Of a DNA stretch of 64,000 bases, positions 25,561-64,000 are shown in pieces (within the stretch, counting starts at the first letter, position 1; each line of letters starts with the position of its first letter). Source of the DNA: Pyropia yezoensis (Eukaryota; Rhodophyta; Bangiophyceae; Bangiales; Bangiaceae); assembly GCA_009829735.1 (NCBI GenBank), contig CM020618.1, positions 33,332,894 through 33,396,893 on the forward strand, written 5' to 3'. The position numbers were made by a program, and so were the translations under genes. The notes beneath the pieces are model-generated. The model ran no database searches and had not been told where the DNA came from. It saw only the letters and a program-made list of their open reading frames with translations.

Positions 25561-26999
25561 GCGGTTGCTGTTGTGTCACGTGGGACGCGTGTGGACGGGG
25601 TGAACTTGTTGGATAGGACAGTGATGTGGCTCTCTATAGTGATTCCGGTGACATCAGCTCCCAGTGTAGCTCCTACGGGGGCGAGCCCCTTGAGGCAATA
25701 ACAGCAGGTGCACAGTGGAGACAGTCAGACGGCACGTGTGTCTTCGCAGCCCGGCTGGCGCACGTCGCTCCCCTCCTGCTGCTGACTGATAGCGGCCAAC
25801 GAAAACCTGGTGTGTATGCTGCAGGAGGCGCGGACTGGAGGTTGGCCAGCAGTTCAAGGCGCTCTTCACAACCATAGGGCCTATGGACAGCGCACAGCTA
25901 TCTGCAGCCTTTTGGTTTTCTGGTCGTCACCGACGCTCTTGTCCATGGACATCACTTGGTATCTTGGTGGGTTCAACTGTTTCCACTGGGATCGCTTTTG
26001 TGTGCCCACATACCACAAGGATATACGTCTGTTGCTGTTCCTCGGGGGCGGTCACTTCAAGAGCAATGCGAGCTACAGTCATCATCCATGAGAGCAGCGC
26101 CAAATCGGTCTCATGAGCGGCAGCGGAGTGCAGTCCGGCTGGCAGTTAGTGGTACGACATATGTAACCAACACAACGAGCCTGTCAGCGGTCAGCGCCAA
26201 CACACACCGAATTGGTTTGGAGGGCTTCAAGCAGCAAGTAGTCCGAAGGGAGTCGAGCAGTGGGAGTAAACACCCTGCCGCTCTTCTTTCCATGTACTTT
26301 GCGTACCTGAGGCACCCGCGAGCCTGTCGGAAGTTGCTTCTCGCTTGGCAGGTAGGGGCATGCAAGAAAGGGCACGGCGCTTTCGCATTGCAGTCATAGA
26401 GACCACCCGTGGTATATATGTTGAGCGCTTATAACCACCAGGCCAGTAAGGACGCTGCACCAGGCATGGAACCTCTCGCGATGTGTCCTTGGATGCGCAG
26501 TGGGGGTTTGTGCGGCTCTCGCGTTGTGGCACTCGGCCGACCACCTGTTCAAGGTCTCCCCTCCCCGCGCTGCCGCACATGTGCGATCACGTCTGGCACT
26601 GGCCACACCAGGAACCGTCGCCTGCTCCCCTCCGCTACACTTCCCGCCGGTCGACTCAGTACGACGCTCCAGGTCGTCGCAGGCGGCTGCGTTGGTGTAC
26701 CATTTGAGCGGTCATGACGACCACACGAGCCCTGAACAAAGCAGGCCGCTGAGACAGACTCCACAGGGAAGATCTCATCAAGCAGGCAGATGTACAAAAA
26801 AAAAAAAGGACTGGCACCAGGATGGCTCCATGGCCGTTGTTCAGCCTGTGGCCTGCGGACAGCTGTGGAGCTCGGCGCGGTGGCACGGTGATCAGGAAAG
26901 GCAATCGTTTTTAATCGTTTTTAATAGTCAAGCAAGAATTCCAAATCAGTATGACACCGCTCTTCCCATTGGCTGTCTAGCTAGTTCGGCTGCTCCGTC
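25561..26999. other. unassigned, mixed composition
   Basis: Lower GC than its surroundings, short broken frames, a 13-A run near 26790, and a duplicated CGTTTTTAAT word at about 26907-26925. No gene, RNA or element recognised. Confidence 0.5.
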
Positions 27000-28950: not shown

Positions 28951-29399
28951 CGTTGACTAAGAATACATACACGCTCGTCATTGGAGCTGCGCTTTGCTGA
29001 CATGATGGCATGCAACCAGGGAAGACCCGCTGCCCAAGATTGGTCGCGGCTAGGGGCCCCAGTCGGAGGGCCTCGCAGCTGCGCAGACGCCGCGGCCACG
29101 CTTCGCCGTTGAGTCGAACAGCACGGGGGTGAGAGCCCGGCACCCCTAAAAGGCGCCGCTGGTGAGGGGGACGGCTGAGGTGGTGGCGAGAAATGCGGCG
29201 GTGGCGGCAGCAGCGGTGACGCCGTGCGGCCAAACCACCCACACCAGCGGATGCGGTGCTGCGCGATGGCGCAAAGAGAAGCGGAGCAGCCGCCAGTATG
29301 CAGTGCATCCAGTGGGCGGGCAGGGACGGGTGTAACTGTCGAGTGGGTGGGGGCGGGAGCTCCCGTCGGGCTCCGGAGCTTAGAGGTAGTGGAGGCCAG
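28951..29399. other. unassigned spacer
   Basis: About 450 bp of ordinary composition between two repeat tracts; nothing recognised. Confidence 0.5.
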
Positions 29400-30492: not shown

Positions 30493-30960
30493 CATCGGGC
30501 GGTGGCAGAAGCTTGGAGGCCGTGGCCAGCCGGCAGCAGCGGTGGCGGCGGCCGGCCTGGAGTGGTCGCGGCAGAGGGGTAGCGGCCAGCTGGCGGCGGC
30601 AGCGGCCGGTTGCCCGTCGCCAGCCGGCAGCGGCGGTGGCGGCGGCGGTGGCCAGCGGCGGCTAGCGTGTGGCGGCGGCGACAGCGACGGGGAGGCGGTG
30701 GCCAGCCGGCAGGGGCGGTGGCAGCGAGGGGCGACTGGCTGGTGGCGGTGGCGGCAGCGGCGGGGGGGTGGTGGCCAGCCAGCAGCGGCGGCGCCAGCCA
30801 TGAGCCAGCGACGGCTGTGGCGGTGGTGGCGGCGATGAGGCCGAAAGCCGGTAGTGGCGAAAGTATTCTGAAGAAGCGGCGGGAGGGGGTGGTGTTGGGG
30901 AGGCGCAGTCAGCTAACCGGCAAGCCGCCGGCAAGCCGGTGGCGACGGCGGCGGTAGGGT
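29400..30960. repeat. GGC/GCA trinucleotide-rich tract
   Basis: Long impure runs of GGCGGC, GGCAGC and GCGGCC words, with all frames giving Gly/Ala/Arg homopolymers. Some runs (near 29745-29825) repeat a GGCGGCGGAGGCCGCG word in tandem. No gene is supported. Confidence 0.65.
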
Positions 30961-33879: not shown

Positions 33880-36360
33880 TTACGGCTGCCCAGGCGCGGC
33901 CCCCGGCGGCACGCCGCCATCACCCGTCCAGCCAGCCGACGTCCAGGCAGGAGGCGCTGACCCTGGCGGTGCGCCACCTGCAACCGCCCAACCGGCTGAA
34001 GTCCAGCCGGTCGGTGCCGACCCAGCCGGCGTGCCGCCAACCACTGTCCACCCAGCCGGCGCCGAGGCGGTCGGGGTCGCACCCGGCGGCGTGCCGCCCA
34101 CCAGCACCCACCGTGCCGGCGTCGCGTCAGCGGGCGGCGCTCTTGACGGCGCGCCGCCTACTTGCACCCATTGAGCCGGCGTCGGAGCGATCGGCGCCGC
34201 CGCCGATGGCGGGCCGCCTACCTGCACCCACTGAGCCGGCGTGGGAGCGGTTGGCGCCGCCGCCGACGACGGGCCGCCAACCTGCACCCACTGAGCCGGC
34301 GTAGGAGCGGTCGGCCGCGCCGCCGACGGCGCCACGGCTGCTGCCATCCACCCTGGCGGCGGTGAGATAGACAGCGTCGCCCCAGCCGGTTCGCCGCCCA
34401 CAAGCATCCATCTGGCCGGTGCCGCGCCAGAAGGCGCAGCCCTCGAGGGCGGGCCACCTACCTGCACCCACTGAGCTGGCGTCAGAGAGGTCGGTATCGA
34501 CGCGGACGGCGGGCCGCCTGCTGCCGCCCACCCAGCCGGCGGTGCGTCGGTCGACGGCGCATCCGTCGCCGTACCACCAACCAGCATCCACCTTGCCGGT
34601 GACGAGTTGGTCGGTGCCGCCCCTGACACCGTGCCGCCCACCAGCATCCACCTTGCCGGCGTCGTGTCCGTGGGCGCCGCCCCCGACGACGCACCGCCCA
34701 CCTGCATCCACTGAGCCCGCGTCGACTCCGCCGATGCCGCTACGGACGGGGCACCCCCCACCTGCACCCACTGTCCCGGCGTCGGGGTGGCAGGCACGGC
34801 CCCTGACGATGGGCTGCCTACCATCATCCACCTCGCCGGCGGTGTATCCGTGGGCGCCGCCCCCGACGAGGCAACGTCTACTTGCATCCACTGAGCCCGT
34901 GTCGACTCCGCCGATGCTGCCACCGACGGCGCACCCCCCACCTGCATCCACTGAGTCTGTGTCGGGGCGGTCCGCGCTGGCCCAGACAACGCGCCCCCGA
35001 CCTGCATCCACTGAGCTTGCGAAGAGACGGCCTGCGCAGCCCCAGACGTTGCGCCGCCCACCATCATCCACCTCGCCGGCGCCGCGTCGGCAGGCCTCGC
35101 CTCCGACGACGCAACGCCCACCTCGGTCCAGTGAGCCAGCGTCGGAGCGCTCGGTGCCGCTCGCGAAGATGCGCCGCCCGCGACCGTCCACTCCAGCGGT
35201 GTGGCACCGATGGGCGACGCGCCCGACGTAGTGCCGCCCTCCAGCCTTGACCTGGTCGGCGCCGCAGCGGTGGGCGCCGAACAATCTGGTGGGCCGCTCC
35301 CGAGCCACCCGGTCGAAGCGGAGTCGGACGGTGCCGCCGCCGTTGGCACGCCCCCGACCGCTGTCCGCCGTTCTTGAGCCGACGGCGACCAAGGCGGCGC
35401 GCCGCCCATGGACGACCAGCCCGCTGAGGCAGGAGAGGTTGGCACCACCCCCGAGGACGCTGGACCCGCTTGAGTCCACCTTGCCAATGATGCATCGGTG
35501 GGCCCAGCCCCCGGCGGAGCGCCGCCGACAACCGACCATCCTTGAGGGATCGCGGCAGGGGGCGCTACCCCCGACGGGGCGCCGCCCAACTGCACCCATT
35601 GTGGTGGCAAGGGAGCAGCATAAGGCGGCGGGCCCCATGAGGCGCCACTCGCCTGCGTCCTTTGAGCCGGCGTCGATTCGGGTGACACAGACCCAGCCGG
35701 CGAACCGCGAACTGCCATTCGGCTGGCCGGCGCCGCTGAGGCCGAATCCAACCCAGCCGGAGCCCTGCTGTCGAGCCCCCACCCAGGCGGCGAAGAGTCG
35801 GACGGCGACGCACCCGACTCCGTGTTGCCAACCACTGACCACCCGGCCGTCGTCCAGTCGGTCCGCATCGCCCCAGACGGCGCGACGCCAGACACGGTCC
35901 ACCCGGCCGGCGTCGCGCCCGTCGGCGCCGCAACCGCAGGCTTGCCGCTGCCCACCATTTGCGTAAGCGGCGCGGGTGCGGACGACGCAGACACAGACGG
36001 CGCGCCACCCGCCACTGTCCACCCAGCCGACGACCAGTCGGCCTGCGTCACCCCGGACGGCAGGTCACCACCCCCTGTGAGGGTGGAAGACGTCCACTCC
36101 GTCCGCACCGACCCAGACAGCGCCTCCGACCAGGTGGCCTCCAACGAATCGCCAGCAAGCGACGCCTCGTTCGCCCTCGTCCCGTCGGACAGCACCACCC
36201 CAGCAGACTGCGTACCCCCGGCGAGGACGCCACTCTTCCGCTCCTCGATAGCCACCCAGCCCGCCGCACCGACGGCCACGGCACCAGCCGGTACGGACCC
36301 TGCATGCCGCGATGCTGTGCGCTGCAATCTGGCGAATACCGACCCTGCGGGGGTCACCCG
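33880..36360 (-). repeat. C-terminal tail of about 20-residue W-x-x-V-G-G repeats
   Basis: About 60-bp degenerate units encode variants of AQWVQVGGPPSAAAPTAPTP, with Trp, Val and Gly-Gly the most conserved positions and Ala/Pro/Ser/Thr linkers. Plus-strand frames across this part are repeatedly broken by TGA in CACTGAGCC words, while the minus frame is uninterrupted. That is the best evidence for the coding strand. The part nearest 36360 is a divergent relative of the second half of the 885-bp unit. Confidence 0.8.
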
Positions 36361-39300
36361 CACCGAGCCAGTCGGCTGCTGCGGGGTGGGCTGCTGCTGC
36401 GGCCCAGCCGGCTGCAGGGCGGGCCACTCGGCCGCGTCCAACTGCAACGTCACGCCCACAGATTCCACCACCGTCGCTGCCGTCGCTGCAACCGGATCCG
36501 TCGCGCCCACCACAGCAACCCCCGTCGGCGCACCGCCTACCACCGTCCACTCGGTCGACGTGGAGTTGACCGGCGCCGCCCCAGACGGCGCGCCACCCGC
36601 CGCTGTCCATCCGGCCGACGTCCACTCTGTCTGCGTTGCCCCCGACAGTGCGCCACCCACCACCGTCCACCCGGCCGGTGTCGTGCCAGTCGGCGCCGAC
36701 ACAGACAGCGTCTCCGACCAGGTACCTCCCACCAAGTTGCCCTCGTACGCAGGCTCAGTCGCCCCCGTCCCGTCGGGCCGCAACACCGCAGAAGCCTGTA
36801 CGCCGCCCACCGGTACGCCGCCCGCTTGGCCGCCGACCGCCACCCCGCCCGCCGCGCCCATTGTCACCTTGCTCGTCGGCTGCGACCCGTCAGGCTCCAT
36901 GCCGGCAGGCTGCTGCTCCACCGGCGCTGACCCAACGCCAGCCACCAGCGTCGCCGCTACCGTGGCGCCCATCAGCTGCCCGGCCACCTCCTGCGCCGAA
37001 GTGTTGTCCCCCGGCTGCATGCCGGTCGGCCGGCCCTCGCCCGCCAAGAGCGTCGCCGGCACCGTACTTTCTGCCGCCTGCTGCGACGCGTCCGGCAACT
37101 CCTTGGCAGGCAGCTTCTCGGCCGGTGCCGACCCAACGCCAGACACCGACGTCGTCGCCACCGTCACGTCCAATGGCTCCGCGGTTGGCCGCAGCGCTGC
37201 TATGTTGTCCACAGGCTGCATGCCTGTCAGCTGCTGCACAACCGGCACCGAGCCAGTCGGCTGCTGCGGGGTGGGCTGCTGCTGCTGCCCAGCCGGCTGC
37301 AGGGCGGGCCACTCGGCCGCGTCCAACTGCAACGTCACGCCCACAGATTCCACCACCGTCGCTGCCGTCGCTGCAACCGGATCCGTCGCGCCCACCACAG
37401 CAACCCCCGTCGGCGCACCGCCTACCACCGTCCACTCGGTCGACGTGGAGTTGACCGGCGCCGCCCCAGACGGCGCGCCACCCGCCGCTGTCCATCCGGC
37501 CGACGTCCACTCTGTCTGCGTTGCCCCCGACAGTGCGCCACCCACCACCGTCCACCCGGCCGGTGTCGTGCCAGTCGGCGCCGACACAGACAGCGTCTCC
37601 GACCAGGTACCTCCCACCAAGTTGCCCTCGTACGCAGGCTCAGTCGCCCCCGTCCCGTCGGGCCGCAACACCGCAGAAGCCTGTACGCCGCCCACCGGTA
37701 CGCCGCCCGCTTGGCCGCCGACCGCCACCCCGCCCGCCGCGCCCATTGTCACCTTGCTCGTCGGCTGCGACCCGTCAGGCTCCATGCCGGCAGGCTGCTG
37801 CTCCACCGGCGCTGACCCAACGCCAGCCACCAGCGTCGCCGCTACCGTGGCGCCCATCAGCTGCCCGGCCACCTCCTGCGCCGAAGTGTTGTCCCCCGGC
37901 TGCATGCCGGTCGGCCGGCCCTCGCCCGCCAAGAGCGTCGCCGGCACCGTACTTTCTGCCGCCTGCTGCGACGCGTCCGGCAACTCCTTGGCAGGCAGCT
38001 TCTCGGCCGGTGCCGACCCAACGCCAGACACCGACGTCGTCGCCACCGTCACGTCCAATGGCTCCGCGGTTGGCCGCAGCGCTGCTATGTTGTCCACAGG
38101 CTGCATGCCTGTCAGCTGCTGCACAACCGGCACCGAGCCAGTCGGCTGCTGCGGGGTGGGCTGCTGCTGCTGCCCAGCCGGCTGCAGGGCGGGCCACTCG
38201 GCCGCGTCCAACTGCAACGTCACGCCCACAGATTCCACCACCGTCGCTGCCGTCGCTGCAACCGGATCCGTCGCGCCCACCACAGCAACCCCCGTCGGCG
38301 CACCGCCTACCACCGTCCACTCGGTCGACGTGGAGTTGACCGGCGCCGCCCCAGACGGCGCGCCACCCGCCGCTGTCCATCCGGCCGACGTCCACTCTGT
38401 CTGCGTTGCCCCCGACAGTGCGCCACCCACCACCGTCCACCCGGCCGGTGTCGTGCCAGTCGGCGCCGACACAGACAGCGTCTCCGACCAGGTACCTCCC
38501 ACCAAGTTGCCCTCGTACGCAGGCTCAGTCGCCCCCGTCCCGTCGGGCCGCAACACCGCAGAAGCCTGTACGCCGCCCACCGGTACGCCGCCCGCTTGGC
38601 CGCCGACCGCCACCCCGCCCGCCGCGCCCATTGTCACCTTGCTCGTCGGCTGCGACCCGTCAGGCTCCATGCCGGCAGGCTGCTGCTCCACCGGCGCTGA
38701 CCCAACGCCAGCCACCAGCGTCGCCGCTACCGTGGCGCCCATCAGCTGCCCGGCCACCTCCTGCGCCGAAGTGTTGTCCCCCGGCTGCATGCCGGTCGGC
38801 CGGCCCTCGCCCGCCAAGAGCGTCGCCGGCACCGTACTTTCTGCCGCCTGCTGCGACGCGTCCGGCAACTCCTTGGCAGGCAGCTTCTCGGCCGGTGCCG
38901 ACCCAACGCCAGACACCGACGTCGTCGCCACCGTCACGTCCAATGGCTCCGCGGTTGGCCGCAGCGCTGCTATGTTGTCCACAGGCTGCATGCCTGTCAG
39001 CTGCTGCACAAACCGGCACCGAGCCAGTCGGCTGCTGCGGGGTGGGCTGCTGCTGCTGCCCAGCCGGCTGCAGGGCGGGCCACTCGGCCGCGTCCAACTG
39101 CAACGTCACGCCCACAGATTCCACCACCGTCGCTGCCGTCGCTGCAACCGGATCCGTCGCGCCCACCACAGCAACCCCCGTCGGCGCACCGCCTACCACC
39201 GTCCACTCGGTCGACGTGGAGTTGACCGGCGCCGCCCCAGACGGCGCGCCACCCGCCGCTGTCCATCCGGCCGACGTCCACTCTGTCTGCGTTGCCCCCG

Positions 39301-42300
39301 ACAGTGCGCCACCCACCACCGTCCACCCGGCCGGTGTCGTGCCAGTCGGCGCCGACACAGACAGCGTCTCCGACCAGGTACCTCCCACCAAGTTGCCCTC
39401 GTACGCAGGCTCAGTCGCCCCCGTCCCGTCGGGCCGCAACACCGCAGAAGCCTGTACGCCGCCCACCGGTACGCCGCCCGCTTGGCCGCCGACCGCCACC
39501 CCGCCCGCCGCGCCCATTGTCACCTTGCTCGTCGGCTGCGACCCGTCAGGCTCCATGCCGGCAGGCTGCTGCTCCACCGGCGCTGACCCAACGCCAGCCA
39601 CCAGCGTCGCCGCTACCGTGGCGCCCATCAGCTGCCCGGCCACCTCCTGCGCCGAAGTGTTGTCCCCCGGCTGCATGCCGGTCGGCCGGCCCTCGCCCGC
39701 CAAGAGCGTCGCCGGCACCGTACTTTCTGCCGCCTGCTGCGACGCGTCCGGCAACTCCTTGGCAGGCAGCTTCTCGGCCGGTGCCGACCCAACGCCAGAC
39801 ACCGACGTCGTCGCCACCGTCACGTCCAATGGCTCCGCGGTTGGCCGCAGCGCTGCTATGTTTTCCACAGGCTGCATGCCTGTCAGCTGCTGCACAACCG
39901 GCACCGAGCCAGTCGGCTGCTGCGGGATGGGCTGCTGCTGCTGCCCAGCCGGCTGCAGGGCGGGCCACTCGGCCGCGTCCAACTGCAACGTCACGCCCAC
40001 AGCCAGCTTGCGGCCGCCCGGCTTGGCCGGCTTGGCCGGCTTGCTGTCGGCCGGGACGCCCGTCGCCTCTGTCCACGACGGGGTGTTGGTCAACCCAGCC
40101 GCCGCCACCACCGTCGCGCCCGTCGCGTCCGTCGTGTCGGCCGCCTCCTCGGGCGACTCCTCCTTCACCTCCTCGGGCGACTCCTCCTCCGCCTCATCCG
40201 GCTCGGTCGAGCCCGACACCACCGCCGCGCCCACCGTACCAAACACCGCCGCCACGGCGCCCACCGCCCCCGCCAGTATCCCCGGCTGCGTGTCCACAGA
40301 CGTCGAGCCCGTCGGCGCCACCCCGGCTGCCGTCGACTCATCGTCCGCCACAGTGTCGTCCGCCGGCTCCATGCCGGCCGGCTGCTCCTCGGCGGCCTCG
40401 CCCCCAGCCGGCAGCAAGCCGGTCGGCAACAAGCCAGTCGGCTGCACGCCGGCCGGCTCCTGCTCCACCGGGTCGTCCGCCGGCTGCGAGCCGGTCGGCT
40501 GCTGCCCGGTGGGCGCAGACCCAAACCCACCCACCAGCGTCGCCGCCACCGTCTCGTCCACCGGCTGCCCGGTCGGCTGCAGCGCCGGCGTGTCGTCGGC
40601 CGGCTGCATGCCGGTGGGCTGCTGCCCGGCAGGCGCCGACCCAACGCCAGCCACCAACGTCGCCCCTACCGCGTCGTCCACCGGCTGCATGCCGGCCGGC
40701 CGCACCTCGCCCGCCCCCACCGTCACCGCCACAGTGTCGTCCGCCGGCTCCATGCCGGCCGGCTGCTCCTCGGCGGCCTCGTCCCCAGCCGGCAGCAAGC
40801 CGGTCGGCAACAAGCCAGTCGGCTGCACGCCGGCCGGCTCCTGCTCCACCGGGTCGTCCGCCGGCTGCGAGCCGGTCGGCTGCGAGCCGGCGGCCTGCTC
40901 CCCAGCCGGCACCGTGCCGGTCGCCACCAAGCCAGACGGCAGCAAGCCGGTCGGCTCGAAGCCAGGCGGCTGCGAGCCGCTCGGCTGCACGCCGCTCGGC
41001 TGCACCGCTGCCGGCTCGTCGGCCGACTGCATGCCGGTTGGCTGCACCCCGGCAGGTGCAGACCCAACACCAGCCGCCAGCGTCGCCGCCACCATGTCGC
41101 CCACCTGCTGCCCGGTCGGCTCCTGCGCCACGGGGTCCTCCGCCGGCTGCTCCCCGGTCGGCTGCTCCCCTGCGGCCTGCTGCCCAGCCGGCACCATGCC
41201 AGCCAGCACCGAGCCCACCGGCTGTACGCTGGTCGGCCCCTGCGCCGCCGAGTCGTCCGCCGGCTGCTCCCCGGTCGGCTGTGAGCCGGCGGGCTGCTCC
41301 CCAGCCGTCTCCATGCCAGCCAGCACCGAGCCCACCGGCTGTACGCTGGTCGGCTCCTGCGCCGCCTCGTCGTCCGCCGGCTGCTCCCCGGTCGGCTGTG
41401 AGCCGGCGGGCTGCTCCCCAGCCGGCTCCATGCCGGTCGGCTGCGCGCCCGCCGGCTCAAAGCCGGTCGGCTGCAAGCCCGACGGCTGCACGCCAGCCGT
41501 CACCCCCGTCGGCTCCGTCGCCCCCACCCCCTCCTCGTCCGACGCTGCCTCGGTCGTCGGCGTCACCCGCGACGGCTCGGTCGTCTCACCCGGCCGCGAC
41601 GGCTTGCGGCCGTCCGGCTTGGTGCCCGACGGCCGCGAGCCGCCCGCCACCGACGCCGCCAGCTCCGCGCGTGACGGCTTGCGGCCGCCCGGCTTGGCCG
41701 GCTTGGCCGGCTTGCTGTCGGCCGGGACGCCCGTCGCCTCTGTCCACGACGGGGTGTTGGTCAACCCAGCCGCCGCCACCACCGTCGCGCCCGTCGCGTC
41801 CGTCGTGTCGGCCGCCTCCTCGGGCGACTCCTCCTTCACCTCCTCGGGCGACTCCTCCTCCGCCTCATCCGGCTCGGTCGAGCCCGACACCACCGCCGCG
41901 CCCACCGTACCAAACACCGCCGCCACGGCGCCCACCGCCCCCGCCAGTATCCCCGGCTGCGTGTCCACAGACGTCGAGCCCGTCGGCGCCACCCCGGCTG
42001 CCGTCGACTCATCGTCCGCCACAGTGTCGTCCGCCGGCTCCATGCCGGCCGGCTGCTCCTCGGCGGCCTCGCCCCCAGCCGGCAGCAAGCCGGTCGGCAA
42101 CAAGCCAGTCGGCTGCACGCCGGCCGGCTCCTGCTCCACCGGGTCGTCCGCCGGCTGCGAGCCGGTCGGCTGCTGCCCGGTGGGCGCAGACCCAAACCCA
42201 CCCACCAGCGTCGCCGCCACCGTCTCGTCCACCGGCTGCCCGGTCGGCTGCAGCGCCGGCGTGTCGTCGGCCGGCTGCATGCCGGTGGGCTGCTGCCCGG

Positions 42301-45300
42301 CAGGCGCCGACCCAACGCCAGCCACCAACGTCGCCCCTACCGCGTCGTCCACCGGCTGCATGCCGGCCGGCCGCACCTCGCCCGCCCCCACCGTCACCGC
42401 CACAGTGTCGTCCGCCGGCTCCATGCCGGCCGGCTGCTCCTCGGCGGCCTCGTCCCCAGCCGGCAGCAAGCCGGTCGGCAACAAGCCAGTCGGCTGCACG
42501 CCGGCCGGCTCCTGCTCCACCGGGTCGTCCGCCGGCTGCGAGCCGGTCGGCTGCGAGCCGGCGGCCTGCTCCCCAGCCGGCACCGTGCCGGTCGCCACCA
42601 AGCCAGACGGCAGCAAGCCGGTCGGCTCGAAGCCAGGCGGCTGCGAGCCGCTCGGCTGCACGCCGCTCGGCTGCACCGCTGCCGGCTCGTCGGCCGACTG
42701 CATGCCGGTTGGCTGCACCCCGGCAGGTGCAGACCCAACACCAGCCGCCAGCGTCGCCGCCACCATGTCGCCCACCTGCTGCCCGGTCGGCTCCTGCGCC
42801 ACGGGGTCCTCCGCCGGCTGCTCCCCGGTCGGCTGCTCCCCTGCGGCCTGCTGCCCAGCCGGCACCATGCCAGCCAGCACCGAGCCCACCGGCTGTACGC
42901 TGGTCGGCTCCTGCGCCGCCGCGTCGTCCGCCGGCTGCTCCCCGGTCGGCTGTGAGCCGGCGGGCTGCTCCCCAGCCGGCTCCATGCCGGTCGGCTGCGC
43001 GCCCGCCGGCTCAAAGCCGGTCGGCTGCAAGCCCGACGGCTGCACGCCAGCCGTCACCCCCGTCGGCTCCGTCGCCCCCACCCCCTCCTCGTCCGACGCT
43101 GCCTCGGTCGTCGGCGTCACCCGCGACGGCTCGGTCGTCTCACCCGGCCGCGACGGCTTGCGGCCGTCCGGCTTGGTGCCCGACGGCCGCGAGCCGCCCG
43201 CCACCGACGCCGCCAGCTCCGCGCGTGACGGCTTGCGGCCGCCCGGCTTGGCCGGCTTGGCCGGCTTGCTGTCGGCCGGGACGCCCGTCGCCTCTGTCCA
43301 CGACGGGGTGTTGGTCAACCCAGCCGCCGCCACCACCGTCGCGCCCGTCGCGTCCGTCGTGTCGGCCGCCTCCTCGGGCGACTCCTCCTTCACCTCCTCG
43401 GGCGACTCCTCCTCCGCCTCATCCGGCTCGGTCGAGCCCGACACCACCGCCGCGCCCACCGTACCAAACACCGCCGCCACGGCGCCCACCGCCCCCGCCA
43501 GTATCCCCGGCTGCGTGTCCACAGACGTCGAGCCCGTCGGCGCCACCCCGGCTGCCGTCGACTCATCGTCCGCCACAGTGTCGTCCGCCGGCTCCATGCC
43601 GGCCGGCTGCTCCTCGGCGGCCTCGCCCCCAGCCGGCAGCAAGCCGGTCGGCAACAAGCCAGTCGGCTGCACGCCGGCCGGCTCCTGCTCCACCGGGTCG
43701 TCCGCCGGCTGCGAGCCGGTCGGCTGCTGCCCGGTGGGCGCAGACCCAAACCCACCCACCAGCGTCGCCGCCACCGTCTCGTCCACCGGCTGCCCGGTCG
43801 GCTGCAGCGCCGGCGTGTCGTCGGCCGGCTGCATGCCGGTGGGCTGCTGCCCGGCAGGCGCCGACCCAACGCCAGCCACCAACGTCGCCCCTACCGCGTC
43901 GTCCACCGGCTGCATGCCGGCCGGCCGCACCTCGCCCGCCCCCACCGTCACCGCCACAGTGTCGTCCGCCGGCTCCATGCCGGCCGGCTGCTCCTCGGCG
44001 GCCTCGTCCCCAGCCGGCAGCAAGCCGGTCGGCAACAAGCCAGTCGGCTGCACGCCGGCCGGCTCCTGCTCCACCGGGTCGTCCGCCGGCTGCGAGCCGG
44101 TCGGCTGCGAGCCGGCGGCCTGCTCCCCAGCCGGCACCGTGCCGGTCGCCACCAAGCCAGACGGCAGCAAGCCGGTCGGCTCGAAGCCAGGCGGCTGCGA
44201 GCCGCTCGGCTGCACGCCGCTCGGCTGCACCGCTGCCGGCTCGTCGGCCGACTGCATGCCGGTTGGCTGCACCCCGGCAGGTGCAGACCCAACACCAGCC
44301 GCCAGCGTCGCCGCCACCATGTCGCCCACCTGCTGCCCGGTCGGCTCCTGCGCCACGGGGTCCTCCGCCGGCTGCTCCCCGGTCGGCTGCTCCCCTGCGG
44401 CCTGCTGCCCAGCCGGCACCATGCCAGCCAGCACCGAGCCCACCGGCTGTACGCTGGTCGGCTCCTGCGCCGCCGCGTCGTCCGCCGGCTGCTCCCCGGT
44501 CGGCTGTGAGCCGGCGGGCTGCTCCCCAGCCGGCTCCATGCCGGTCGGCTGCGCGCCCGCCGGCTCAAAGCCGGTCGGCTGCAAGCCCGACGGCTGCACG
44601 CCAGCCGTCACCCCCGTCGGCTCCGTCGCCCCCACCCCCTCCTCGTCCGACGCTGCCTCGGTCGTCGGCGTCACCCGCGACGGCTCGGTCGTCTCACCCG
44701 GCCGCGACGGCTTGCGGCCGTCCGGCTTGGTGCCCGACGGCCGCGAGCCGCCCGCCACCGACGCCGCCAGCTCCGCGCGTGACGGCTTGCGGCCGCCCGG
44801 CTTGGCCGGCTTGGCCGGCTTGCTGTCGGCCGGGACGCCCGTCGCCTCTGTCCACGACGGGGTGTTGGTCAACCCAGCCGCCGCCACCACCGTCGCGCCC
44901 GTCGCGTCCGTCGTGTCGGCCACCTCCTCGGGCGACTCCTCCTTCACCTCCTCGGGCGACTCCTCCTCCGCCTCATCCGGCTCGGTCGAGCCCGACACCA
45001 CCGCCGCGCCCACCGTACCAAACACCGCCGCCACGGCGCCCACCGCCCCCGCCAGTATCCCCGGCTGCGTGTCCACAGACGTCGAGCCCGTCGGCGCCAC
45101 CCCGGCTGCCGTCGACTCATCGTCCGCCACAGTGTCGTCCGCCGGCTCCATGCCGGCCGGCTGCTCCTCGGCGGCCTCGCCCCCAGCCGGCAGCAAGCCG
45201 GTCGGCAACAAGCCAGTCGGCTGCACGCCGGCCGGCTCCTGCTCCACCGGGTCGTCCGCCGGCTGCGAGCCGGTCGGCTGCTGCCCGGTGGGCGCAGACC

Positions 45301-54300: not shown

Positions 54301-57300
54301 CGGCTCGGTCGAGCCCGACACCACCGCCGCGCCCACCGTACCAAACACCGCCGCCACGGCGCCCACCGCCCCCGCCAGTATCCCCGGCTGCGTGTCCACA
54401 GACGTCGAGCCCGTCGGCGCCACCCCGGCTGCCGTCGACTCATCGTCCGCCACAGTGTCGTCCGCCGGCTCCATGCCGGCCGGCTGCTCCTCGGCGGCCT
54501 CGCCCCCAGCCGGCAGCAAGCCGGTCGGCAACAAGCCAGTCGGCTGCACGCCGGCCGGCTCCTGCTCCACCGGGTCGTCCGCCGGCTGCGAGCCGGTCGG
54601 CTGCTGCCCGGTGGGCGCAGACCCAAACCCACCCACCAGCGTCGCCGCCACCGTCTCGTCCACCGGCTGCCCGGTCGGCTGCAGCGCCGGCGTGTCGTCG
54701 GCCGGCTGCATGCCGGTGGGCTGCTGCCCGGCAGGCGCCGACCCAACGCCAGCCACCAACGTCGCCCCTACCGCGTCGTCCACCGGCTGCATGCCGGCCG
54801 GCCGCACCTCGCCCGCCCCCACCGTCACCGCCACAGTGTCGTCCGCCGGCTCCATGCCGGCCGGCTGCTCCTCGGCGGCCTCGTCCCCAGCCGGCAGCAA
54901 GCCGGTCGGCAACAAGCCAGTCGGCTGCACGCCGGCCGGCTCCTGCTCCACCGGGTCGTCCGCCGGCTGCGAGCCGGTCGGCTGCGAGCCGGCGGCCTGC
55001 TCCCCAGCCGGCACCGTGCCGGTCGCCACCAAGCCAGACGGCAGCAAGCCGGTCGGCTCGAAGCCAGGCGGCTGCGAGCCGCTCGGCTGCACGCCGCTCG
55101 GCTGCACCGCTGCCGGCTCGTCGGCCGACTGCATGCCGGTTGGCTGCACCCCGGCAGGTGCAGACCCAACACCAGCCGCCAGCGTCGCCGCCACCATGTC
55201 GCCCACCTGCTGCCCGGTCGGCTCCTGCGCCACGGGGTCCTCCGCCGGCTGCTCCCCGGTCGGCTGCTCCCCTGCGGCCTGCTGCCCAGCCGCCACCATG
55301 CCAGCCAGCACCGAGCCCACCGGCTGTACGCTGGTCGGCTCCTGCGCCGCCGCGTCGTCCGCCGGCTGCTCCCCGGTCGGCTGTGAGCCGGCGGGCTGCT
55401 CCCCAGCCGGCTCCATGCCGGTCGGCTGCGCGCCCGCCGGCTCAAAGCCGGTCGGCTGCAAGCCCGACGGCTGCACGCCAGCCGTCACCCCCGTCGGCTC
55501 CGTCGCCCCCACCCCCTCCTCGTCCGACGCTGCCTCGGTCGTCGGCGTCACCCGCGACGGCTCGGTCGTCTCACCCGGCCGCGACGGCTTGCGGCCGTCC
55601 GGCTTGGTGCCCGACGGCCGCGAGCCGCCCGCCACCGACGCCGCCAGCTCCGCGCGTGACGGCTTGCGGCCGCCCGGCTTGGCCGGCTTGGCCGGCTTGC
55701 TGTCGGCCGGGACGCCCGTCGCCTCTGTCCACGACGGGGTGTTGGTCAACCCAGCCGCCGCCACCACCGTCGCGCCCGTCGCGTCCGTCGTGTCGGCCGC
55801 CTCCTCGGGCGACTCCTCCTTCACCTCCTCGGGCGACTCCTCCTCCGCCTCATCCGGCTCGGTCGAGCCCGACACCACCGCCGCGCCCACCGTACCAAAC
55901 ACCGCCGCCACGGCGCCCACCGCCCCCGCCAGTATCCCCGGCTGCGTGTCCACAGACGTCGAGCCCGTCGGCGCCACCCCGGCTGCCGTCGACTCATCGT
56001 CCGCCACAGTGTCGTCCGCCGGCTCCATGCCGGCCGGCTGCTCCTCGGCGGCCTCGCCCCCAGCCGGCAGCAAGCCGGTCGGCAACAAGCCAGTCGGCTG
56101 CACGCCGGCCGGCTCCTGCTCCACCGGGTCGTCCGCCGGCTGCGAGCCGGTCGGCTGCTGCCCGGTGGGCGCAGACCCAAACCCACCCACCAGCGTCGCC
56201 GCCACCGTCTCGTCCACCGGCTGCCCGGTCGGCTGCAGCGCCGGCGTGTCGTCGGCCGGCTGCATGCCGGTGGGCTGCTGCCCGGCAGGCGCCGACCCAA
56301 CGCCAGCCACCAACGTCGCCCCTACCGCGTCGTCCACCGGCTGCATGCCGGCCGGCCGCACCTCGCCCGCCCCCACCGTCACCGCCACAGTGTCGTCCGC
56401 CGGCTCCATGCCGGCCGGCTGCTCCTCGGCGGCCTCGTCCCCAGCCGGCAGCAAGCCGGTCGGCAACAAGCCAGTCGGCTGCACGCCGGCCGGCTCCTGC
56501 TCCACCGGGTCGTCCGCCGGCTGCGAGCCGGTCGGCTGCGAGCCGGCGGCCTGCTCCCCAGCCGGCACCGTGCCGGTCGCCACCAAGCCAGACGGCAGCA
56601 AGCCGGTCGGCTCGAAGCCAGGCGGCTGCGAGCCGCTCGGCTGCACGCCGCTCGGCTGCACCGCTGCCGGCTCGTCGGCCGACTGCATGCCGGTTGGCTG
56701 CACCCCGGCAGGTGCAGACCCAACACCAGCCGCCAGCGTCGCCGCCACCATGTCGCCCACCTGCTGCCCGGTCGGCTCCTGCGCCACGGGGTCCTCCGCC
56801 GGCTGCTCCCCGGTCGGCTGCTCCCCTGCGGCCTGCTGCCCAGCCGCCACCATGCCAGCCAGCACCGAGCCCACCGGCTGTACGCTGGTCGGCTCCTGCG
56901 CCGCCGCGTCGTCCGCCGGCTGCTCCCCGGTCGGCTGTGAGCCGGCGGGCTGCTCCCCAGCCGGCTCCATGCCGGTCGGCTGCGCGCCCGCCGGCTCAAA
57001 GCCGGTCGGCTGCAAGCCCGACGGCTGCACGCCAGCCGTCACCCCCGTCGGCTCCGTCGCCCCCACCCCCTCCTCGTCCGACGCTGCCTCGGTCGTCGGC
57101 GTCACCCGCGACGGCTCGGTCGTCTCACCCGGCCGCGACGGCTTGCGGCCGTCCGGCTTGGTGCCCGACGGCCGCGAGCCGCCCGCCACCGACGCCGCCA
57201 GCTCCGCGCGTGACGGCTTGCGGCCGCCCGGCTTGGCCGGCTTGGCCGGCTTGCTGTCGGCCGGGACGCCCGTCGCCTCTGTCCACGACGGGGTGTTGGT

Positions 57301-60300
57301 CAACCCAGCCGCCGCCACCACCGTCGCGCCCGTCGCGTCCGTCGTGTCGGCCGCCTCCTCGGGCGACTCCTCCTTCACCTCCTCGGGCGACTCCTCCTCC
57401 GCCTCATCCGGCTCGGTCGAGCCCGACACCACCGCCGCGCCCACCGTACCAAACACCGCCGCCACGGCGCCCACCGCCCCCGCCAGTATCCCCGGCTGCG
57501 TGTCCACAGACGTCGAGCCCGTCGGCGCCACCCCGGCTGCCGTCGACTCATCGTCCGCCACAGTGTCGTCCGCCGGCTCCATGCCGGCCGGCTGCTCCTC
57601 GGCGGCCTCGCCCCCAGCCGGCAGCAAGCCGGTCGGCAACAAGCCAGTCGGCTGCACGCCGGCCGGCTCCTGCTCCACCGGGTCGTCCGCCGGCTGCGAG
57701 CCGGTCGGCTGCTGCCCGGTGGGCGCAGACCCAAACCCACCCACCAGCGTCGCCGCCACCGTCTCGTCCACCGGCTGCCCGGTCGGCTGCAGCGCCGGCG
57801 TGTCGTCGGCCGGCTGCATGCCGGTGGGCTGCTGCCCGGCAGGCGCCGACCCAACGCCAGCCACCAACGTCGCCCCTACCGCGTCGTCCACCGGCTGCAT
57901 GCCGGCCGGCCGCACCTCGCCCGCCCCCACCGTCACCGCCACAGTGTCGTCCGCCGGCTCCATGCCGGCCGGCTGCTCCTCGGCGGCCTCGTCCCCAGCC
58001 GGCAGCAAGCCGGTCGGCAACAAGCCAGTCGGCTGCACGCCGGCCGGCTCCTGCTCCACCGGGTCGTCCGCCGGCTGCGAGCCGGTCGGCTGCGAGCCGG
58101 CGGCCTGCTCCCCAGCCGGCACCGTGCCGGTCGCCACCAAGCCAGACGGCAGCAAGCCGGTCGGCTCGAAGCCAGGCGGCTGCGAGCCGCTCGGCTGCAC
58201 GCCGCTCGGCTGCACCGCTGCCGGCTCGTCGGCCGACTGCATGCCGGTTGGCTGCACCCCGGCAGGTGCAGACCCAACACCAGCCGCCAGCGTCGCCGCC
58301 ACCATGTCGCCCACCTGCTGCCCGGTCGGCTCCTGCGCCACGGGGTCCTCCGCCGGCTGCTCCCCGGTCGGCTGCTCCCCTGCGGCCTGCTGCCCAGCCG
58401 CCACCATGCCAGCCAGCACCGAGCCCACCGGCTGTACGCTGGTCGGCTCCTGCGCCGCCGCGTCGTCCGCCGGCTGCTCCCCGGTCGGCTGTGAGCCGGC
58501 GGGCTGCTCCCCAGCCGGCTCCATGCCGGTCGGCTGCGCGCCCGCCGGCTCAAAGCCGGTCGGCTGCAAGCCCGACGGCTGCACGCCAGCCGTCACCCCC
58601 GTCGGCTCCGTCGCCCCCACCCCCTCCTCGTCCGACGCTGCCTCGGTCGTCGGCGTCACCCGCGACGGCTCGGTCGTCTCACCCGGCCGCGACGGCTTGC
58701 GGCCGTCCGGCTTGGTGCCCGACGGCCGCGAGCCGCCCGCCACCGACGCCGCCAGCTCTGCGCGTGACGGCTTGCGGCCGCCCGGCTTGGCCGGCTTGGC
58801 CGGCTTGCTGTCGGCCGGGACGCCCGTCGCCTCTGTCCACGACGGGGTGTTGGTCAACCCAGCCGCCGCCACCACCGTCGCGCCCGTCGCGTCCGTCGTG
58901 TCGGCCGCCTCCTCGGGCGACTCCTCCTTCACCTCCTCGGGCGACTCCTCCTCCGCCTCATCCGGCTCGGTCGAGCCCGACACCACCGCCGCGCCCACCG
59001 TACCAAACACCGCCGCCACGGCGCCCACCGCCCCCGCCAGTATCCCCGCCTGCGTGTCCACAGACGTCGAGCCCGTCGGCGCCACCCCGGCTGCCGTCGA
59101 CTCATCGTCCGCCACAGTGTCGTCCGCCGGCTCCATGCCGGCCGGCTGCTCCTCGGCGGCCTCGCCCCCAGCCGGCAGCAAGCCGGTCGGCAACAAGCCA
59201 GTCGGCTGCACGCCGGCCGGCTCCTGCTCCACCGGGTCGTCCGCCGGCTGCGAGCCGGTCGGCTGCTGCCCGGTGGGCGCAGACCCAAACCCACCCACCA
59301 GCGTCGCCGCCACCGTCTCGTCCACCGGCTGCCCGGTCGGCTGCAGCGCCGGCGTGTCGTCGGCCGGCTGCATGCCGGTGGGCTGCTGCCCGGCAGGCGC
59401 CGACCCAACGCCAGCCACCAACGTCGCCCCTACCGCGTCGTCCACCGGCTGCATGCCGGCCGGCCGCACCTCGCCCGCCCCCACCGTCACCGCCACAGTG
59501 TCGTCCGCCGGCTCCATGCCGGCCGGCTGCTCCTCGGCGGCCTCGTCCCCAGCCGGCAGCAAGCCGGTCGGCAACAAGCCAGTCGGCTGCACGCCGGCCG
59601 GCTCCTGCTCCACCGGGTCGTCCGCCGGCTGCGAGCCGGTCGGCTGCGAGCCGGCGGCCTGCTCCCCAGCCGGCACCGTGCCGGTCGCCACCAAGCCAGA
59701 CGGCAGCAAGCCGGTCGGCTCGAAGCCAGGCGGCTGCGAGCCGCTCGGCTGCACGCCGCTCGGCTGCACCGCTGCCGGCTCGTCGGCCGACTGCATGCCG
59801 GTTGGCTGCACCCCGGCAGGTGCAGACCCAACACCAGCCGCCAGCGTCGCCGCCACCATGTCGCCCACCTGCTGCCCGGTCGGCTCCTGCGCCACGGGGT
59901 CCTCCGCCGGCTGCTCCCCGGTCGGCTGCTCCCCTGCGGCCTGCTGCCCAGCCGCCACCATGCCAGCCAGCACCGAGCCCACCGGCTGTACGCTGGTCGG
60001 CTCCTGCGCCGCCGCGTCGTCCGCCGGCTGCTCCCCGGTCGGCTGTGAGCCGGCGGGCTGCTCCCCAGCCGGCTCCATGCCGGTCGGCTGCGCGCCCGCC
60101 GGCTCAAAGCCGGTCGGCTGCAAGCCCGACGGCTGCACGCCAGCCGTCACCCCCGTCGGCTCCGTCGCCCCCACCCCCTCCTCGTCCGACGCTGCCTCGG
60201 TCGTCGGCGTCACCCGCGACGGCTCGGTCGTCTCACCCGGCCGCGACGGCTTGCGGCCGTCCGGCTTGGTGCCCGACGGCCGCGAGCCGCCCGCCACCGA

Positions 60301-63300
60301 CGCCGCCAGCTCTGCGCGTGACGGCTTGCGGCCGCCCGGCTTGGCCGGCTTGGCCGGCTTGCTGTCGGCCGGGACGCCCGTCGCCTCTGTCCACGACGGG
60401 GTGTTGGTCAACCCAGCCGCCGCCACCACCGTCGCGCCCGTCGCGTCCGTCGTGTCGGCCGCCTCCTCGGGCGACTCCTCCTTCACCTCCTCGGGCGACT
60501 CCTCCTCCGCCTCATCCGGCTCGGTCGAGCCCGACACCACCGCCGCGCCCACCGTACCAAACACCGCCGCCACGGCGCCCACCGCCCCCGCCAGTATCCC
60601 CGCCTGCGTGTCCACAGACGTCGAGCCCGTCGGCGCCACCCCGGCTGCCGTCGACTCATCGTCCGCCACAGTGTCGTCCGCCGGCTCCATGCCGGCCGGC
60701 TGCTCCTCGGCGGCCTCGCCCCCAGCCGGCAGCAAGCCGGTCGGCAACAAGCCAGTCGGCTGCACGCCGGCCGGCTCCTGCTCCACCGGGTCGTCCGCCG
60801 GCTGCGAGCCGGTCGGCTGCTGCCCGGTGGGCGCAGACCCAAACCCACCCACCAGCGTCGCCGCCACCGTCTCGTCCACCGGCTGCCCGGTCGGCTGCAG
60901 CGCCGGCGTGTCGTCGGCCGGCTGCATGCCGGTGGGCTGCTGCCCGGCAGGCGCCGACCCAACGCCAGCCACCAACGTCGCCCCTACCGCGTCGTCCACC
61001 GGCTGCATGCCGGCCGGCCGCACCTCGCCCGCCCCCACCGTCACCGCCACAGTGTCGTCCGCCGGCTCCATGCCGGCCGGCTGCTCCTCGGCGGCCTCGT
61101 CCCCAGCCGGCAGCAAGCCGGTCGGCAACAAGCCAGTCGGCTGCACGCCGGCCGGCTCCTGCTCCACCGGGTCGTCCGCCGGCTGCGAGCCGGTCGGCTG
61201 CGAGCCGGCGGCCTGCTCCCCAGCCGGCACCGTGCCGGTCGCCACCAAGCCAGACGGCAGCAAGCCGGTCGGCTCGAAGCCAGGCGGCTGCGAGCCGCTC
61301 GGCTGCACGCCGCTCGGCTGCACCGCTGCCGGCTCGTCGGCCGACTGCATGCCGGTTGGCTGCACCCCGGCAGGTGCAGACCCAACACCAGCCGCCAGCG
61401 TCGCCGCCACCATGTCGCCCACCTGCTGCCCGGTCGGCTCCTGCGCCACGGGGTCCTCCGCCGGCTGCTCCCCGGTCGGCTGCTCCCCTGCGGCCTGCTG
61501 CCCAGCCGCCACCATGCCAGCCAGCACCGAGCCCACCGGCTGTACGCTGGTCGGCTCCTGCGCCGCCGCGTCGTCCGCCGGCTGCTCCCCGGTCGGCTGT
61601 GAGCCGGCGGGCTGCTCCCCAGCCGGCTCCATGCCGGTCGGCTGCGCGCCCGCCGGCTCAAAGCCGGTCGGCTGCAAGCCCGACGGCTGCACGCCAGCCG
61701 TCACCCCCGTCGGCTCCGTCGCCCCCACCCCCTCCTCGTCCGACGCTGCCTCGGTCGTCGGCGTCACCCGCGACGGCTCGGTCGTCTCACCCGGCCGCGA
61801 CGGCTTGCGGCCGTCCGGCTTGGTGCCCGACGGCCGCGAGCCGCCCGCCACCGACGCCGCCAGCTCTGCGCGTGACGGCTTGCGGCCGCCCGGCTTGGCC
61901 GGCTTGGCCGGCTTGCTGTCGGCCGGGACGCCCGTCGCCTCTGTCCACGACGGGGTGTTGGTCAACCCAGCCGCCGCCACCACCGTCGCGCCCGTCGCGT
62001 CCGTCGTGTCGGCCGCCTCCTCGGGCGACTCCTCCTTCACCTCCTCGGGCGACTCCTCCTCCGCCTCATCCGGCTCGGTCGAGCCCGACACCACCGCCGC
62101 GCCCACCGTACCAAACACCGCCGCCACGGCGCCCACCGCCCCCGCCAGTATCCCCGGCTGCGTGTCCACAGACGTCGAGCCCGTCGGCGCCACCCCGGCT
62201 GCCGTCGACTCATCGTCCGCCACAGTGTCGTCCGCCGGCTCCATGCCGGCCGGCTGCTCCTCGGCGGCCTCGCCCCCAGCCGGCAGCAAGCCGGTCGGCA
62301 ACAAGCCAGTCGGCTGCACGCCGGCCGGCTCCTGCTCCACCGGGTCGTCCGCCGGCTGCGAGCCGGTCGGCTGCTGCCCGGTGGGCGCAGACCCAAACCC
62401 ACCCACCAGCGTCGCCGCCACCGTCTCGTCCACCGGCTGCCCGGTCGGCTGCAGCGCCGGCGTGTCGTCGGCCGGCTGCATGCCGGTGGGCTGCTGCCCG
62501 GCAGGCGCCGACCCAACGCCAGCCACCAACGTCGCCCCTACCGCGTCGTCCACCGGCTGCATGCCGGCCGGCCGCACCTCGCCCGCCCCCACCGTCACCG
62601 CCACAGTGTCGTCCGCCGGCTCCATGCCGGCCGGCTGCTCCTCGGCGGCCTCGTCCCCAGCCGGCAGCAAGCCGGTCGGCAACAAGCCAGTCGGCTGCAC
62701 GCCGGCCGGCTCCTGCTCCACCGGGTCGTCCGCCGGCTGCGAGCCGGTCGGCTGCGAGCCGGCGGCCTGCTCCCCAGCCGGCACCGTGCCGGTCGCCACC
62801 AAGCCAGACGGCAGCAAGCCGGTCGGCTCGAAGCCAGGCGGCTGCGAGCCGCTCGGCTGCACGCCGCTCGGCTGCACCGCTGCCGGCTCGTCGGCCGACT
62901 GCATGCCAGTTGGCTGCACCCCGGCAGGTGCAGACCCAACACCAGCCGCCAGCGTCGCCGCCACCATGTCGCCCACCTGCTGCCCGGTCGGCTCCTGCGC
63001 CACGGGGTCCTCCGCCGGCTGCTCCCCGGTCGGCTGCTCCCCTGCGGCCTGCTGCCCAGCCGCCACCATGCCAGCCAGCACCGAGCCCACCGGCTGTACG
63101 CTGGTCGGCTCCTGCGCCGCCGCGTCGTCCGCCGGCTGCTCCCCGGTCGGCTGTGAGCCAGCGGGCTGCTCCCCAGCCGGCTCCATGCCGGTCGGCTGCG
63201 CGCCCGCCGGCTCAAAGCCGGTCGGCTGCAAGCCCGACGGCTGCACGCCAGCCGTCACCCCCGTCGGCTCCGTCGCCCCCACCCCCTCCTCGTCCGACGC

Positions 63301-64000
63301 TGCCTCGGTCGTCGGCGTCACCCGCGACGGCTCGGTCGTCTCACCCGGCCGCGACGGCTTGCGGCCGTCCGGCTTGGTGCCCGACGGCCGCGAGCCGCCC
63401 GCCACCGACGCCGCCAGCTCCGCGCGTGACGGCTTGCGGCCGCCCGGCTTGGCCGGCTTGGCCGGCTTGCTGTCGGCCGGGACGCCCGTCGCCTCTGTCC
63501 ACGACGGGGTGTTGGTCAACCCAGCCGCCGCCACCACCGTCGCGCCCGTCGCGTCCGTCGTGTCGGCCGCCTCCTCGGGCGACTCCTCCTTCACCTCCTC
63601 GGGCGACTCCTCCTCCGCCTCATCCGGCTCGGTCGAGCCCGACACCACCGCCGCGCCCACCGTACCAAACACCGCCGCCACGGCGCCCACCGCCCCCGCC
63701 AGTATCCCCGCCTGCGTGTCCACAGACGTCGAGCCCGTCGGCGCCACCCCGGCTGCCGTCGACTCATCGTCCGCCACAGTGTCGTCCGCCGGCTCCATGC
63801 CGGCCGGCTGCTCCTCGGCGGCCTCGCCCCCAGCCGGCAGCAAGCCGGTCGGCAACAAGCCAGTCGGCTGCACGCCGGCCGGCTCCTGCTCCACCGGGTC
63901 GTCCGCCGGCTGCGAGCCGGTCGGCTGCTGCCCGGTGGGCGCAGACCCAAACCCACCCACCAGCGTCGCCGCCACCGTCTCGTCCACCGGCTGCCCGGTC
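33880..64000 (-). CDS. giant tandem-repeat protein, N-terminus outside window
   Basis: About 10,000 codons in the window, stop TAA at 33882-33880, start beyond 64000. N to C: sixteen landmark copies of a 518-residue unit rich in Q-P-T-G / E-P-A-G pentapeptides; four copies of a 295-residue unit; about 40 degenerate W-x-x-V-G-G repeats. I recognise no family. The 518 unit has no Cys, His or Tyr in the copies read. It carries a 25-residue hydrophobic Gly/Ala/Val stretch, an acidic block (EAEEESPEEVKEESPEE) and a basic block (SKPAKPAKPGGRKPSRA). Coding is supported by unit lengths divisible by three (1554, 885, 117) and by the minus frame alone staying open through the diverged tail. Ten one-base indels (39009 and 45.97-48.41 kb) break the frame locally but sum to zero. 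A secreted or surface matrix protein is a guess from composition only. Confidence 0.7.
36361..40001 (-). repeat. 885-bp (295-residue) tandem repeat, four copies plus a fragment
   Basis: Unit starts (word CACCGAGCCAGTCGG) fall at 36361, 37246, 38131, 39017 and 39902. The third unit is 886 bp because of one extra A at about 39009. Copies are nearly identical (differences at 39863 and 39927, for example). Each unit encodes a Gln-rich segment (LQPAGQQQQPTPQQPTG), Q-L-T-G-M-Q-P and ATLVAGVGSAP motifs shared with the 518-residue unit, then W-x-x-V-G-G motifs shared with the tail. Confidence 0.92.
40002..64000 (-). repeat. 1554-bp (518-residue) tandem repeat, about 15.4 units, continuing past window
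   Basis: A landmark at the hydrophobic segment (word CCGCCAGTATCCCC) recurs sixteen times from about 40270 to 63705. Spacing is 1554 bp except 1671 (a 117-bp duplication) for the left-most pair, 1552 and 1555 where indels lie. Units are close to identical, with scattered single-base variants shared by subsets of copies. Inside each unit the motif AATL-x2-G-x-GSAP occurs three times and pentapeptide Q-P-T-G-x dominates, so the unit itself grew by smaller duplications. Confidence 0.95.
41196..41429 (-). repeat. 117-bp (39-residue) duplication inside one 1554-bp unit
   Basis: 41196-41312 and 41313-41429 are tandem near-copies starting ATGCCAGCCAGCACCGAGCC, with a few substitutions. Found only in the left-most unit. 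The length is a multiple of three, so the reading frame is kept. Confidence 0.9.

What the first reader, a model, noticed from the sequence alone, without database searches (positions are those of the whole stretch)
33880..64000. A gene of more than 10,000 codons built from three nested repeat classes
The sequence shows one minus-strand frame across 30 kb with sixteen near-identical 518-residue modules, four 295-residue modules and a tail of about 20-residue W-x-x-V-G-G repeats, with its start still outside. All unit lengths are multiples of three. I know of no described family with this plan. Its size, the near identity of its modules and the lack of Cys, His and Tyr in the main module suggest a fast-evolving structural, adhesive or matrix protein. 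That function is inference.
Basis: partly seen in the sequence, partly recalled or inferred. Interest (0 to 1): 0.92.

Follow-up and report, generated by a model that had tools for sequence, protein, structure and literature searches.

The report
Giant repeat-tailed membrane protein of nori
In the genome of the edible red seaweed nori, one gene appears to encode a membrane-anchored protein of more than 11,000 amino acids whose long repetitive tail probably lies inside the cell and grew recently by repeated copying of one large unit.

Summary
A 1554-bp (518-codon) unit fills 40006-66103 (16.8 unit lengths; the last 2.1 kb lie beyond the window). On the minus strand it is followed by four 885-bp-class units and a tail of 20-residue W-x-x-V-G-G repeats, with a stop at 33880. 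Scaffold lengths identify the genome as Pyropia yezoensis (nori). I found the start 3.9 kb beyond the window: signal peptide, a domain of about 170 residues shared with two other genes of this genome, an acidic linker, a strong transmembrane helix followed by RRRRR, then the repeats. This reads as a type I membrane protein with a giant acidic tail predicted to be cytosolic, not as a secreted adhesin or matrix protein. Corrections: the frame is broken in the assembly by ten 1-base indels in three repeat copies, which look like long-read consensus errors; the copy number is unreliable, since about ten more units lie between two 500-N gaps at the scaffold end; and open frames in such an array prove little (two plus-strand frames are open too). 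Evidence for coding is strong for the N-terminus, moderate for the W tail and indirect for the modules. Expression, sidedness and function are inferred.

The parts
33880..64000 (-). The part of the proposed gene that lies in the window. The whole gene runs from a start codon 3,857 bases beyond the right edge (67857 in continued coordinates, G000:C1:33400750) to the stop codon at 33880: 33,978 bp, 11,326 codon lengths with the stop; no intron needed, none tested. Outside the window lie (66104-67857) the signal-peptide-like segment, a domain of about 170 residues, an acidic linker, a transmembrane helix near residues 340-361 followed by RRRRR, and about 200 residues before the array
   Evidence: Frames and ends; ATG context AACCATG; hydropathy peaks 2.94 (helix) and 2.21 (signal segment); related genes
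40006..64000 (-). Array of the 1554-bp (518-codon) module as far as the window goes; it ends at 66103 in continued coordinates, 16.8 unit lengths in all
45340..48446 (-). Two adjacent module copies that hold nine 1-base indels; none of the other 13 full copies has one
40561..42231 (-). Longer copy of the module (1671 bp, 117 bp more than the unit); 117-bp tandem repeats lie here
36454..39994 (-). Four units of 885, 886, 885 and 885 bp (295 codons); the second carries one extra T
33880..36453 (-). C-terminal part with 20-residue W-x-x-V-G-G repeats, ending at the stop codon

Best explanation
A nuclear gene of Pyropia yezoensis encodes a type I membrane protein of about 11,325 residues as assembled. 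A signal peptide brings a small domain into the lumen or outside, one helix crosses the membrane, and about 10,950 residues follow on the cytosolic side, the last 10,740 or so being repeats. Most likely mechanism: the N-terminus fixes the chain to a membrane; the modules, each with a net charge of about -60 and rich in Ala, Gly, Pro and Thr, form a long flexible acidic brush or tether; and the Trp motifs at the far end bind a cytosolic partner many times over. The tail lengthens and shortens by unequal exchange and conversion between modules. Shown: repeats, start and stop, signal-helix anatomy by hydropathy, two genes sharing the N-terminal domain. Inferred: expression, cytosolic side, flexibility, brush or tether role, binding end. 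My odds: protein-coding gene 0.9; modules translated as part of it 0.85; tail cytosolic 0.75; brush or tether with a binding end 0.4.
For: Open frame from a signal-peptide-like start through domain, helix and RRRRR into the modules. Domain shared with a C3 gene (48% identity, E 1.1e-48) and more weakly a C2 gene (36%, E 6.1e-4); 43 positions identical in all three. Giant gene against C3 gene over 148 codons: differences 44/38/83 at codon positions 1/2/3, and 53 of 95 identical residues use another codon. Module G+C at codon positions 1/2/3 is .78/.61/.915, as in the two related frames.78/.67/.86 and .79/.71/.90. W tail: position 3 more variable than position 2 (p 0.0004), and the share of synonymous one-base codon differences.432, is the highest of six frames (next .401). 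Indels: 9 of 9 in the modules lie in two adjacent copies, 8 of them beside the same base; the tenth lengthens a T run. The assembly used PacBio RSII, HGAP3, PBJelly and Quiver (PMC7423979, passages).
Against: No transcript or peptide was seen. Module sub-repeats show no excess of third-position differences; position 1 often leads. The W tail against its copies elsewhere differs almost evenly over codon positions: 34/28/33 and 36/29/32 as aligned, 46/36/55 for the third copy; 8/9/14 with 10 synonymous and 20 non-synonymous codons after an out-of-register end is left out. W-tail position 3 is not above position 1 (p 0.16), the Friedman p in the gene's register is 0.07, and the two shifted registers give 0.013 and 0.026. 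G+C by position is atypical in the W tail (.68/.79/.74) and at 66105-67854 (.68/.61/.68). Charge-hydropathy does not call the tail disordered: all three repeat classes fall on the folded side of the line, the module barely (.457 against .455). Each module has a hydrophobic stretch (Kyte-Doolittle 2.02, but unfavourable on a second scale), so alternating topology is not excluded. A search with the C2 protein did not list the giant gene at E 0.1 or better.
Confidence: 0.55

Rival explanations
1. The frameshifts are real, and the locus makes a shorter product: the frame that holds the start ends at 46669 as assembled (7,067 open codons), or the gene is decaying; units 3' of the break are remnants.
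For: As assembled the frame from the start ends at 46669. Partial copies of the C-terminal half elsewhere are mostly broken by stops or gaps, and the tail shows little sign of constraint.
Against: 9 of 9 module indels lie in two adjacent copies and none in the other 13 full copies; decay would spread them. The W tail, 3' of the break, is still open to 33880 and keeps a moderate coding signal.
Confidence: 0.15
2. Extracellular adhesin or matrix protein: the repeats lie outside the cell.
For: A signal-peptide-like start and Pro/Thr/Gly/Ala-rich repeats; such composition is common in cell-wall proteins (recalled).
Against: The strong helix with RRRRR after it stands between the domain and the repeats, which puts the repeats in the cytosol by the positive-inside rule (recalled).
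Confidence: 0.15
3. The array is non-coding satellite DNA that happens to sit beside, or inside, a smaller gene.
For: Random units of this composition have an open frame in 345 of 1000 cases, plus-strand frames are open too, and sub-repeats show no third-position excess.
Against: The frame enters the array directly from the conserved N-terminal part without a stop; module G+C by codon position matches the related genes.
Confidence: 0.08
4. The array is largely an assembly artefact.
For: A repeat-only piece of about ten units lies between two 500-N gaps at C1:16698-32308; within it 3 intervals compared hold 7, 0 and 1 indels and a 4609-bp interval was not resolved. Usual RSII reads are shorter than the 26-kb array (recalled).
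Against: Copies carry seven variable sites in different combinations, so they are not one read repeated. The spare units suggest a longer array rather than a shorter one.
Confidence: 0.05

Closest known systems
Two genes of the same genome: G000:C3:20016998-20017993 (frame of 885 codons) and G000:C2:8222399-8222863 (frame of 589 codons)
   Same: The N-terminal domain; by eye also a hydrophobic helix after an acidic or Gly/Asp-rich linker
   Different: Short tails without the modules or the W repeats; they share a motif HDYxIxxGPVxxSxPPPPPG(F/Y) that I did not see in the giant gene (by eye). The C2 signal peptide is not in the same frame as its domain (by eye)
Giant repeat proteins such as titin and secreted mucins (recalled; titin papers seen only as listings)
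   Same: Very long chains built from repeated units that change number
   Different: No Pfam match above cut-off in the four parts tested; predicted membrane anchor at the N-terminus with the repeats on the cytosolic side
Tandem repeats that create disordered regions, as in archaeal Borg elements (PMC9879509, abstract start in a listing)
   Same: Nearly identical tandem repeats within coding sequence
   Different: Here a nuclear eukaryotic gene with 518-codon units; no relation claimed

Membership tests
Family of the N-terminal domain (C3 and C2 genes) | Sequence similarity of the domain | tested here: met
   E 1.1e-48 and 6.1e-4; 43 identical positions in three sequences. The reverse search with the C2 protein found the C3 gene but not the giant gene
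Family of the N-terminal domain (C3 and C2 genes) | Tail homologous to the other members' tails | tested here: not met
   C3 tail as query found only itself at E 0.01; W-repeat score model no better than shuffles in either tail (308 and 344 of 500 shuffles reached it)
Type I membrane protein | Signal peptide, luminal domain, one helix with positive charges on its C-terminal side | tested here: met
   Hydropathy and sequence only; no dedicated predictor and no experiment
Secreted adhesin or matrix protein | Repeats on the outer side | tested here: inconclusive
   Predicted cytosolic by helix and RRRRR; module hydrophobic stretch leaves doubt
Any Pfam family | Profile match above curated cut-off | tested here: not met
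   N-terminal 374 residues, module, 885-class stretch and W tail: none; best is Hemotin, E 0.15, 12.2 bits against a cut-off of 27. NCBIfam, PHROGs and PADLOC were not run
Intrinsically disordered protein | Charge-hydropathy below the boundary | tested here: not met
   Module .457 against .455, 885-class unit .503 against .434, W tail .490 against .413; disorder-promoting residues .69.62.71.
Satellite DNA | No conserved coding frame | tested here: inconclusive
   Coding signal in flanking parts and in module composition, none in sub-repeat differences

The most novel reading that the evidence does not exclude
A membrane-protein family of red algae in which one member carries a cytosolic tail of more than 10,000 residues: a membrane-anchored acidic polymer brush with a Trp-repeat binding end, whose length varies between individuals by unequal exchange of a 518-residue module.
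Probability: 0.3. Interest if true: 0.75.

Novelty: new variant of a known kind. Interest (0 to 1): 0.55.

Why it matters
Giant repeat proteins are mostly known as muscle springs, mucins or surface adhesins (recalled). A giant tail on the cytosolic side of a small single-pass membrane protein would be an unusual plan, and the two short-tailed genes in the same genome offer a comparison for how such a tail arises. The locus also warns that near-identical, GC-rich arrays in long-read assemblies acquire frame breaks and stray repeat-only pieces, which automatic annotation is likely to cut up.

Tried and rejected
W repeats as an expansion of a motif in the short tails: a 20-position score model did no better than shuffles (308 of 500 and 344 of 500 shuffles reached the best score in the C3 and C2 tails); rejected.

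Dispersed C-terminal copies as processed retrocopies, which would have proved transcription: the copies at C1:9.05M, C2:16.48M and C2:26.59M run on past the stop codon into downstream DNA, with pieces 95-100% identical down to about window 30836 for the longest. They look like segmental duplicates; rejected.

Apparent fast change of the W tail (95.8% identity against 99% in the flank): most of it comes from an out-of-register alignment at one end; in register the tail differs at 31 of 1770 sites and the flank at 7 of 811.

Relatives elsewhere: 228 pattern hits in prokaryote genomes and 48 in viral contigs, none confirmed; no solved structure at E 1. No eukaryotic collection was on hand, so restriction to red algae is untested. 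Ribosomal RNA searches to name the organism failed by machine error.

Papers: of PMC7423979 I saw passages. All others were seen as search listings only. None of the listed titles or abstract starts describes this gene; seven word searches cannot exclude that it is in print.

Full report
What is there. The window is G000:C1:33332894-33396893 of a genome of 107,475,971 bases in 11 contigs. Contigs C1, C2 and C3 measure 43,592,136, 34,331,705 and 29,385,039 bases. The published Pyropia yezoensis assembly has scaffolds of 43.6, 34.3 and 29.4 Mb (PMC7423979, passages), so I take the organism to be nori. That assembly used PacBio RSII reads, HGAP3, PBJelly and Quiver, then BioNano and Hi-C. Coordinates above 64000 below continue the window to the right.

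The array. A 1554-bp unit runs from 40006 to 66103, which is 16.8 unit lengths. Of 15 full-length copies, 13 have exactly 1554 bp and 0-3 substitutions from their consensus; seven sites vary among them, in different combinations. Four of the seven variants change the amino acid and three do not. This is the pattern that unequal exchange or conversion leaves (inference). On the minus strand follow four units of 885, 886, 885 and 885 bp and then the W repeats, 60 bp long, to the stop at 33880.

The frame. A single frame does not hold in the assembly. Nine 1-base indels lie in the two adjacent copies at 45340-48446, six in one and three in the other; eight of the nine stand beside the same base; the other 13 full copies have none. 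A tenth is an extra T in a T run of the second 885-class unit. I read them as uncorrected long-read errors (inference). The net shift is zero, so start and stop share a frame, 11,326 codon lengths apart; one case in three would do so by chance.

Copy number. A second array of about ten units, C1:16698-32308, has a 500-N gap on each side. In the 10.6 kb of it that I read, three intervals between anchors hold 7, 0 and 1 indels; a 4609-bp interval was not resolved. It is a repeat-only piece placed at the scaffold end, so the true number of modules is unknown and may be higher (inference).

The beginning. The open frame runs 3.9 kb past the window edge. Its first ATG is at 67857, in the context AACCATG. 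Then come a signal-peptide-like segment, a domain of about 170 residues, an acidic linker and a helix with a Kyte-Doolittle mean of 2.94 followed by RRRRR. The domain occurs in a C3 gene and, more weakly, in a C2 gene; 43 positions are identical in all three. A search with the C2 protein gave four places: itself, a short stretch on C2 (E 7e-10), the C3 gene (E 5e-8) and a weak one on C3 (E 0.01); the giant gene was not among them.

Is it coding? For the N-terminus, yes: differences from the C3 gene fall 44/38/83 on codon positions 1/2/3 over 148 codons. Against the C2 gene they fall 61/62/76 over 130 codons. For the W tail the signal is moderate: entropy over 27 blocks is 1.26/0.98/1.38 at positions 1/2/3; position 3 exceeds position 2 (p 0.0004) but not position 1 (p 0.16); the Friedman p is 0.07 in this register and lower in the two shifted ones; the synonymous share is the highest of six frames.432 with .401 next. 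For the modules it is indirect: G+C of .78/.61/.915 by position, as in the related genes, and a frame that enters from the N-terminus without a stop. Against it, sub-repeats in the module show no excess at position 3, and an open frame in such DNA is common: 345 of 1000 random units have one.

Copies elsewhere. Parts of the C-terminal half recur at C1:9.05M, C2:16.48M and C2:26.59M. Most frames there are broken, though one stretch of 821 codons on C1 is open. Differences from the gene are spread almost evenly over codon positions. The copies continue beyond the stop codon into downstream DNA. They are segmental duplicates and do not prove transcription. Shorter module fragments, 89-97% identical, lie at four other places.

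How it likely works. The anatomy predicts a type I membrane protein with its repeats in the cytosol. One module has a net charge of -60 and 69% disorder-promoting residues, and 25 matches to [QE]P[ASTP]G. Yet simple charge-hydropathy puts all three repeat classes on the folded side of the line, the module barely, and no fold could be computed. I still favour a flexible acidic brush or tether with a multivalent Trp-repeat binding end, at odds of 0.4.

Known or new. None of the four parts tested matched Pfam above cut-off; the N-terminal domain matched no solved structure and no prokaryote or viral contig. No eukaryotic collection was searched. Giant repeat proteins are a known kind; a giant cytosolic repeat tail on a small single-pass membrane protein is, to my recall, an unusual plan. 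I rate it a new variant of a known kind.

Noticed in passing
window 606-1412 (-), 8073-8984 (+), 12794-15264 (-): Pieces of LTR retrotransposons: reverse transcriptase, RNase H and integrase domains above Pfam cut-off in 3 of 10 frames scanned, weaker matches in 2 more. The first 3 kb of the window have 43 listed matches in the genome, itself included, a lower bound.
   Followed up: partly
G000:C1:16698-32308 (ends read in L036 and L037, part in L057): Repeat-only piece of about ten modules between two 500-N gaps at the scaffold end.
   Followed up: partly
window about 30836-40474, and C1:9.05M, C2:16.48M, C2:26.59M: Segment with the C-terminal half of the gene and its downstream flank, duplicated in three other places.
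   Followed up: partly
L017 and L018: A 38-bp tandem repeat adjoins the duplicated gene fragment in the C1:9.05M and C2:16.48M copies; not seen in the giant gene.
   Followed up: no
window 44780-64000 and 46332-64000, + strand: Two plus-strand frames open for 7165 and 6604 codons over the array (they run on past the window edge); taken as by-products of one open unit repeated.
   Followed up: partly
window 25000-29018: A 90% identical copy of about 4 kb at C1:19915991-19920009.
   Followed up: no
L026 and L027: The two short-tailed genes share a tail motif HDYxIxxGPVxxSxPPPPPG(F/Y), seen by eye.
   Followed up: no
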